NCBI GenBank assembly: GCA_963169515.1
Contig: CAUJEF010000054.1
Coordinates: 1 to 32,688 of the forward strand
Length of the DNA stretch: 32,688 nt
Source: Bdellovibrionota bacterium
GTDB lineage: Bacteria > Bdellovibrionota > Bdellovibrionia > Bdellovibrionales > JAEYZS01
Direction: 5' to 3'
Shown: in pieces, positions 9,284-10,201 of the stretch
How the letters are laid out: every line of letters starts with the position of its first letter
How positions within the stretch are numbered: the stretch's first letter is position 1
Program-made: the position numbers and the translations under genes
The notes under the pieces: generated by a model
What the model saw: the letters and a program-made list of their open reading frames with translations, nothing else
Told to the model about the DNA's origin: nothing
The model's database searches: none

Positions 9284-10153
9284 ATGCGTTACCTTATTTT
9301 AGTCACACTTTTAGCTTTTGAAGCCATGGCTGGGGCCCGAACAGTTGCTGTCCATGGTCACCGCGGGTCTCGAGGGTACTATCCTGAAAATACTCTACCA
9401 GCTTTTGCCCATGCCTTAAAAGTGGGGGTAAACGTCCTCGAACTAGATACGGGTATAACCAAAGACGAACAGGTGATTGTGTCCCATGACCCCGTCATAA
9501 ATCCGCGTCATTGTTTAGATAAAGATGGAAAGGTCGTCACATCCAAAGTTATTTTAAAAAATATCACTCTTAAAGAGGTAAAAGAATACGATTGTGGGGC
9601 ACTCAAAAACTCTGATTTTCCAAAACAAACTCCTGTTCCAAAGACCTCTATCCCAACCTTGTCTGAAGTTTTTGAACTAGCAACAAAAGATGAGTCTTTG
9701 GCGGCAAGCAAAGTTCTTTTTAATATTGAAACAAAAATTGAACCCGGAAACCCGGAGCTTTATACAGACCCAGGAAAGTTCGTCAAATTACTCTACGCCG
9801 TCATAAAAAAACATGGGATGGAAAAACGTGTTATCATTCAATCGTTTGATTTCAGAACGCTTGTAGAAATTAGAAAATTAGATAGGCGCATCCCTATATC
9901 ACTTCTTTTAAGCGATGAACCGGGCGACCTGGCAAAGCTTGTGAAAGAGTATAAACCAAATATTGTCTCCCCCAACTTCAAGTGGGTTAAAGAAAAGCAT
10001 GTCAACGCTTTAAAGAAACTCGGCGTCCAAACTATCCCATGGACCCCCAATAGAGAATCTGACTGGAAAAAACTAATAAAAATGAAAGTTGACGGAATTA
10101 TCACCGACTACCCAGACGATTTGATAAGGTTCCAGGTTCCTTTTTCCGAATAA
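9284..10153 (+). CDS. secreted glycerophosphodiester phosphodiesterase
   Basis: 289 aa. Signal peptide, then HGHRGSRGYYPENTLPAFAHAL...VLELDTGITKDEQVIVSHDP (GDPD signature) and DGIITDYPDDL. The last 8 residues lie in an inverted repeat. Confidence 0.92.
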   Translation: MRYLILVTLLAFEAMAGARTVAVHGHRGSRGYYPENTLPAFAHALKVGVNVLELDTGITKDEQVIVSHDPVINPRHCLDKDGKVVTSKVILKNITLKEVKEYDCGALKNSDFPKQTPVPKTSIPTLSEVFELATKDESLAASKVLFNIETKIEPGNPELYTDPGKFVKLLYAVIKKHGMEKRVIIQSFDFRTLVEIRKLDRRIPISLLLSDEPGDLAKLVKEYKPNIVSPNFKWVKEKHVNALKKLGVQTIPWTPNRESDWKKLIKMKVDGIITDYPDDLIRFQVPFSE

Positions 10154-10201
10154 TCGTCCGAGTGGCGGACGATTATTCGGAAAAAGGAACCTGGAACCTT
10201 A
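10125..10201. repeat. perfect inverted repeat, 36-nt arms (10125-10160 / 10166-10201), 5-nt loop
   Basis: taaggttccaggttcctttttccgaataatcgtccg / agtgg / cggacgattattcggaaaaaggaacctggaacctta. It supplies the 3' ends of both convergent flanking genes. Confidence 0.97.

What the first reader, a model, noticed from the sequence alone, without database searches (positions are those of the whole stretch)
10125..10201. Palindromic element encodes identical C-terminal tails and stops for two convergent genes
A perfect inverted repeat (36-nt arms, 5-nt loop) sits across the 3' ends of the GDPD gene (+) and a GNAT gene (-). Each gene enters the repeat in the same relative frame, reads AGG TTC CAG GTT CCT TTT TCC GAA TAA, and ends in the same 8 residues, RFQVPFSE. 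Two unrelated enzymes therefore carry an identical appended tail made by the repeat. This suggests an inserted or propagated element with a built-in stop in this frame, acting as a bidirectional hairpin at the gene junction. No long U-tract follows either arm, so it is not a textbook intrinsic terminator.
Basis: partly seen in the sequence, partly recalled or inferred. Interest (0 to 1): 0.8.

Follow-up and report, generated by a model that had tools for sequence, protein, structure and literature searches.

The report
Transposase-linked palindromic repeat at gene ends
The perfect palindrome that gives two neighbouring genes the same tail is one copy of a small repeat scattered through this genome, of the kind linked to single-strand-DNA 'tyrosine' transposases, which settled across the ends of two genes that face each other; it is a real mobile-type repeat, but of a known kind.

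Summary
In detail: a perfect 36-bp inverted repeat with a 5-nt loop (10125-10201) holds the last eight codons and the stop of both the GDPD gene (+) and the GNAT gene (-), each ending RFQVPFSE. It is not unique. Its end sequence AGGTTCCAGGTTC occurs 20 times at 14 loci in the genome, six times as inverted pairs (control 0-1). Its core hairpin (GTCCG..CGGAC) and head pattern (AGGTNNNNNGTWCCYTTT: 52 hits, control 0-1) are shared with the inverted ends of Y1 tyrosine-transposase genes in the same genome. One sister family (AGGTACGCCGTTCC, 13 palindromic copies, one at window 34-126) has its transposase on contig C152. Near-identical heads flank such transposases in a Bacteriovoracaceae MAG and a Chromatiales MAG. 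Homologues of both proteins end without the tail. The element is therefore best read as a dispersed repeat of the RAYT/'TIRtron' type (PMC3733652); the shared tail is a by-product of insertion at gene ends. No transposase carrying exactly the AGGTTCC head was found in this genome, and the element lacks the GTAG tag of classical REPs. Function is inferred: a very stable 3' hairpin on both transcripts, without a U-tract.

The parts
10125..10201 (.). whole palindromic element (36-nt arms, 5-nt loop)
10126..10145 (+). left head AAGGTTCCAGGTTCCTTTTT
   Evidence: 20 half-sites in genome; head pattern shared with transposase ends
10181..10200 (-). right head, same sequence on the - strand
10156..10170 (.). 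core hairpin GTCCG-AGTGG-CGGAC
   Evidence: core family TCCGNNTANCGGA, 27 matches against 1/0 in control; shared with ends of the transposase genes on C96 and C105
10146..10155 (+). 10-nt spacer CCGAATAATC between head and core; its complement lies at 10171-10180
   Evidence: single copies have 10-11 nt here
10127..10153 (+). last 8 codons and stop of the GDPD gene (RFQVPFSE*)
   Evidence: homologues lack the tail
10173..10199 (-). last 8 codons and stop of the GNAT gene (RFQVPFSE*)
   Evidence: homologues lack the tail
34..126 (.). copy of the sister family (heads AAGGTACGCCGTTCC), whose heads equal the ends of the transposase gene on C152

Best explanation
The palindrome is one copy of a dispersed, non-autonomous repeat of the RAYT / 'TIRtron' kind. 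Such repeats carry the inverted ends of genes for Y1 (HUH) tyrosine transposases related to IS200/IS605 and are thought to be spread as single-stranded hairpins. Each unit is a head (AAGGTTCCAGGTTCCTTTTT), about 10 nt of spacer and a GTCCG..CGGAC hairpin. In the window two heads flank a single hairpin, so the whole element is one perfect stem. Copies are found mostly at the 3' ends of genes, where insertion is tolerated. Here the element lies across both 3' ends of a convergent pair, stands in place of the last few residues of both proteins, and its reading frame supplies the same eight residues and stop to each. Shown: the copies, the head and core shared with transposase ends, and the absence of the tail in homologues. 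Inferred: mobilisation by a tyrosine transposase (for this head type lost, unassembled or acting in trans), and that in RNA the 36-bp hairpin protects or ends both transcripts.
For: 20 half-sites at 14 loci, control 0-1. Patchy distribution: 3 of 142 genomes of the order, none in the two other genomes of the family. Core hairpin shared with several heads. Four Y1_Tnp genes in this genome with inverted heads of the same kind, best NCBIfam match REP-associated tyrosine transposase. Head pattern with 52 hits against 0/1, all in three families, two of them with a transposase. Sister family of 13 palindromes. Near-identical heads at transposase genes in G060 and G069. Homologues without the tail. 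Published parallels: TIRtrons and stop codons supplied by repeat termini.
Against: No transposase gene with exactly the AGGTTCCAGGTTCC head was found in this genome. No GTAG/CGTC tag. Transposase scores are below the NCBIfam cut-off (46-67 of 80 bits). No empty site at the same gene junction was found. Copy number is low for REPs.
Confidence: 0.84

Rival explanations
1. One head-hairpin unit landed beside one gene and the second half was made locally by fold-back, self-templated DNA synthesis from the hairpin, so that the second gene's tail is a copy of the first gene's end. This concerns how the palindrome became perfect and is compatible with the main explanation.
For: Many copies have only one head. 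The window's spacer arms are perfectly complementary although spacers differ between copies. In the sister family the inner arms match better within a copy than between copies (0.89 against 0.77; 0 of 20,000 permutations reach it). In G023 the perfect arms enclose different hairpins.
Against: Movement of ready-made palindromes, gene conversion between arms or selection for pairing would give the same pattern. Central deletion of an inverted dimer has been proposed for 'double foot' REPs. In this genome complementarity hardly extends beyond the heads.
Confidence: 0.3
2. It is a functional bidirectional transcription terminator or 3'-stabilising hairpin kept by selection at a convergent junction, not a mobile element.
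For: Convergent position, very stable stem on both strands. In G023 similar arms enclose hairpins that look like ordinary bidirectional terminators with T-tracts.
Against: No U-tract after the stem. Some copies are single, lie between divergent genes, or lie before a start codon (C48, C57). The head sequence is conserved beyond what a terminator needs. The distribution is patchy. A role after insertion is not excluded.
Confidence: 0.1
3. The RFQVPFSE tail is a functional peptide tag shared by the two enzymes.
For: Identical tails on two unrelated proteins.
Against: None of the 19 closest listed homologues of either protein examined has it. Other genes reading into copies use another frame (KVPGSFS, KVPGS) or stop at the head.
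Confidence: 0.02

Closest known systems
TIRtrons / TIRYT genes and their dispersed TIR repeats (Di Nocera et al. 2013, PMC3733652)
   Same: Y1 tyrosine-transposase genes flanked by long inverted repeats without GTAG; copies of these ends dispersed as singles and inverted dimers; some self-complementary.
   Different: Other sequences and host group; here several heads share one core hairpin and many copies are long stems with two heads; for the AGGTTCC head the cognate transposase was not found in this genome.
REP / REPIN repeats with RAYT transposases (Nunvar 2010, PMC2817692; Bertels and Rainey 2011, PMC3116915)
   Same: Short dispersed palindromes, inverted pairs, RAYT gene between two inverted units, position downstream of genes; repeat termini can supply stop codons.
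   Different: No GTAG/GT[AG]G tag; one shared hairpin instead of two; low copy number.
'Double foot' REP sequences (TnpAREP subclass 2.4, PMC6006769)
   Same: One hairpin with the recognition motif at both ends; the authors suggest central deletion of an inverted dimer.
   Different: Different motif, longer arms here, and membership of subclass 2.4 was not tested.

Membership tests
TIRYT / TIRtron repeat | Y1 (HUH) tyrosine-transposase gene flanked by long inverted repeats of the same head | tested here: inconclusive
   Met for the sister heads in the same genome (C152, C105, C96, C139) and, within a base or two of the head, in G060 and G069; not found for exactly AGGTTCCAGGTTCC in this genome.
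TIRYT / TIRtron repeat | End repeats dispersed in the genome as singles and dimers | tested here: met
   20 half-sites at 14 loci, six inverted pairs; sister family with 13 pairs.
Classical GTAG REP / REPIN | GTAG (GT[AG]G) tetranucleotide at the foot of the hairpin | tested here: not met
   The head is AAGGTTCC; no GTAG or GTGG at the foot of either the long stem or the core hairpin (sequence).
Classical GTAG REP / REPIN | Two complete units in inverted orientation | tested here: inconclusive
   Two inverted heads but one shared central hairpin.
Classical GTAG REP / REPIN | Mobilisation by the cognate transposase | not testable with these tools
   Needs a binding, cleavage or transposition assay.
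Intrinsic terminator | G+C-rich stem followed by a T-tract | tested here: not met
   No terminator-like site at 9900-10500.
DNA uptake sequence | Word strongly over-represented genome-wide | tested here: not met
   AGGTTCC is near expectation in the window (10 against 9.0) and the full head has only 20 copies in the genome.

The most novel reading that the evidence does not exclude
In this lineage tyrosine-transposase repeats are turned into long perfect palindromes by hairpin-primed self-copying, so that an insertion at one gene's end can write the same tail and stop into the facing gene: a mutation route that makes shared C-termini in convergent genes.
Probability: 0.28. Interest if true: 0.55.

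Novelty: new member of a known kind. Interest (0 to 1): 0.38.

Why it matters
It shows that a striking coincidence, two unrelated proteins with the same last eight residues, is the footprint of a dispersed repeat and not a shared function. It also adds families from the Bdellovibrionota (one with a resident transposase gene and 13 palindromic copies) to the thinly described TIR-type branch of REP-like elements; I found no report of REP-type repeats for this group in the papers searched. Several heads that share one core hairpin within one genome make head specificity of these transposases testable.

Tried and rejected
Uptake-sequence idea. Terminator. Rfam gave only matches below the gathering score, mostly microRNA precursors, which I ascribe to the long stem. 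No match in phages or plasmids. Paper searches with the arm sequence gave only unrelated papers, apparently with primer or construct sequences. A collection scan found AGGTT..AACCT palindromes in many phyla; most outside Bdellovibrionota are heptamer arrays (AGGTTYC)n, and the Y1 genes examined in those genomes have other inverted ends or none, so I treat them as a separate matter, except the Chromatiales case. A gene between two inverted heads in G060 C27 turned out not to be a transposase.

Full report
What is there. The window holds a perfect inverted repeat at 10125-10201 (arms 36 nt, loop 5 nt). The GDPD ORF 9284-10153 (+) and the GNAT ORF 10173-10628 (-) run into it from either side and both end RFQVPFSE. 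The stem folds at -72.1 kcal/mol on one strand and -67.1 on the other, z about -13. No terminator-like T-tract follows.

It is a repeat. The genome (2.38 Mb, 173 contigs; the window is contig C54) has 20 copies of AGGTTCCAGGTTC at 14 loci, with 0-1 matches of the reversed control. Six loci are inverted pairs. Others are single units; those with a recognisable core have the layout AAGGTTCCAGGTTCC, T-tract, about 10-11 nt, GTCCGNNTANCGGAC. In the order, 3 of 142 genomes have AGGTTCCAGGTTCCT: the window's genome (12), G023 of another family (21) and one genome with a single hit. The two other genomes of its own family have none. This patchiness fits a mobile element.

Link to transposases. The core TCCGNNTANCGGA has 27 matches against 1/0 in the control. 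Next to it stand different heads: the window head, GGTGCCWGGCACC, AGGTAGGCCGTACC and AGGTACGCCGTACC. The genome has 12 Y1_Tnp matches. The genes on C96, C105, C139 and C152 are flanked by inverted heads: GGGTGCCAGGCACC, CTAAGGTAGGCCGTACCTTTTTGATGTGCA, AAGGTACCCACTCACTTTTGG and TAAAAGGTACGCCGTTCCCTTTC. Their proteins carry the HUH motif, are about 35-55% identical to one another and best match the NCBIfam REP-associated tyrosine transposase, though below its cut-off. The other eight Y1 genes form a separate branch of similar copies, of which the one scanned is IS200-like, without such heads.

Head grammar. AGGTNNNNNGTWCCYTTT has 52 matches in the genome against 0/1 in the control. All fall in three head families: ACGCC (transposase on C152), AGGCC (transposase on C105) and TCCAG (the window element; no transposase found). 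I derived the pattern from these heads, so the count shows how specific it is and is not an independent prediction. The ACGCC family has 13 distinct two-headed palindromes of 83-93 bp, one of them at window 34-126, just before the ORF at 133. This sister family is the clearest evidence for what the window palindrome is.

Other genomes. In the Bacteriovoracaceae MAG (G060), AAAAGGTTCCAGGTTCC palindromes coexist with a transposase gene flanked by CAAAAGGTTCCTGGTTCCAAAA. In G023 a transposase gene is flanked by AGGTTCCAGCTCCCTCCGTGCAC, and an AGGTTCCAGGTTCC unit lies next to it. In the Chromatiales MAG (G069) a transposase gene has GAAAAGGTACCGGGTTTATTTT ends, and the same contig carries AAAAGGTTCCAGGTTTATTTT palindromes.

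The tails. GDPD homologues end ...DLIKYLDKK (64% identical) or ...FLKR; GNAT homologues end ...HKVMYKELDI (74% identical) or ...MYKEI. The element therefore stands in place of the last few residues, outside the conserved part. Across the genome, 6 of 20 half-sites abut a stop codon exactly, and in three of these the head's own A completes TAA. Four half-sites are entered by ORFs that end 22-27 nt inside, two of them the window genes; the one on C17 may be spurious. Frames differ, so the peptide is not conserved: KVPGSFS at C94, KVPGS in G023 and G060. Insertion near gene ends is what selection would leave, and stop codons supplied by repeat termini are described for REPs (PMC3733652).

How the stem became perfect. 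Within each sister-family copy the inner arms match better than between copies (0.89 against 0.77; 0 of 20,000 permutations). Self-templated copying, movement of the symmetrical element, gene conversion or selection for pairing could each do this. Central deletion of an inverted dimer has been proposed for 'double foot' REPs (PMC6006769). I cannot decide between them.

Limits. The genome is a fragmented assembly in which repeats sit at contig ends (C31; several in G023), so copies and the cognate transposase may be missing. No empty site was found: in five relatives the GDPD gene is present but no GNAT match lies within the roughly 1.5 kb fetched on either side. RNA function is untested. That the host belongs to the Bdellovibrionota is inferred from the names of protein homologues.

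Noticed in passing
window 34-126: Second palindromic repeat in the window (AAGGTACGCCGTTCC heads), ending 6 bases before the ORF at 133; member of the sister family whose transposase gene is on C152.
   Followed up: yes
own genome, e.g. L107, L119, L136: A third repeat family, GGTGCCWGGCACC next to the same core hairpin (47 places with up to one mismatch, control 0), flanking the transposase gene on C96.
   Followed up: partly
L057, L058, L063, L065, L067, L073, L081, L096 and similar loci: Head-to-head arrays of the heptamer AGGTTYC around palindromes in Acidobacteria, Chloroflexi, Rhodothermaceae, Planctomycetes and others. The pure AGGTTCC array is open in all six reading frames. No link to Y1 transposases was seen; the reason for the shared heptamer across phyla is unexplained.
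   Followed up: partly
L159 and L064 (G069, Chromatiales MAG): Cluster of two-headed palindromes GAAAAGGTACCGGGTTTATTTT beside a Y1 transposase gene, and AAAAGGTTCCAGGTTTATTTT palindromes on the same contig.
   Followed up: partly
L036, L046 (G023): Nested palindromes: AGGTTCCAGGTTCC pairs lie in the centre of a larger palindrome GGTTCCAGC(T/A)CCCTGCGTGCACG; several contigs of G023 begin or end in these repeats.
   Followed up: no
window 11734-11762: A 13-bp perfect hairpin AGTTCCTTGCATG-CTT-CATGCAAGGAACT inside the ORF 11631-12233 (-), not related to the element.
   Followed up: no
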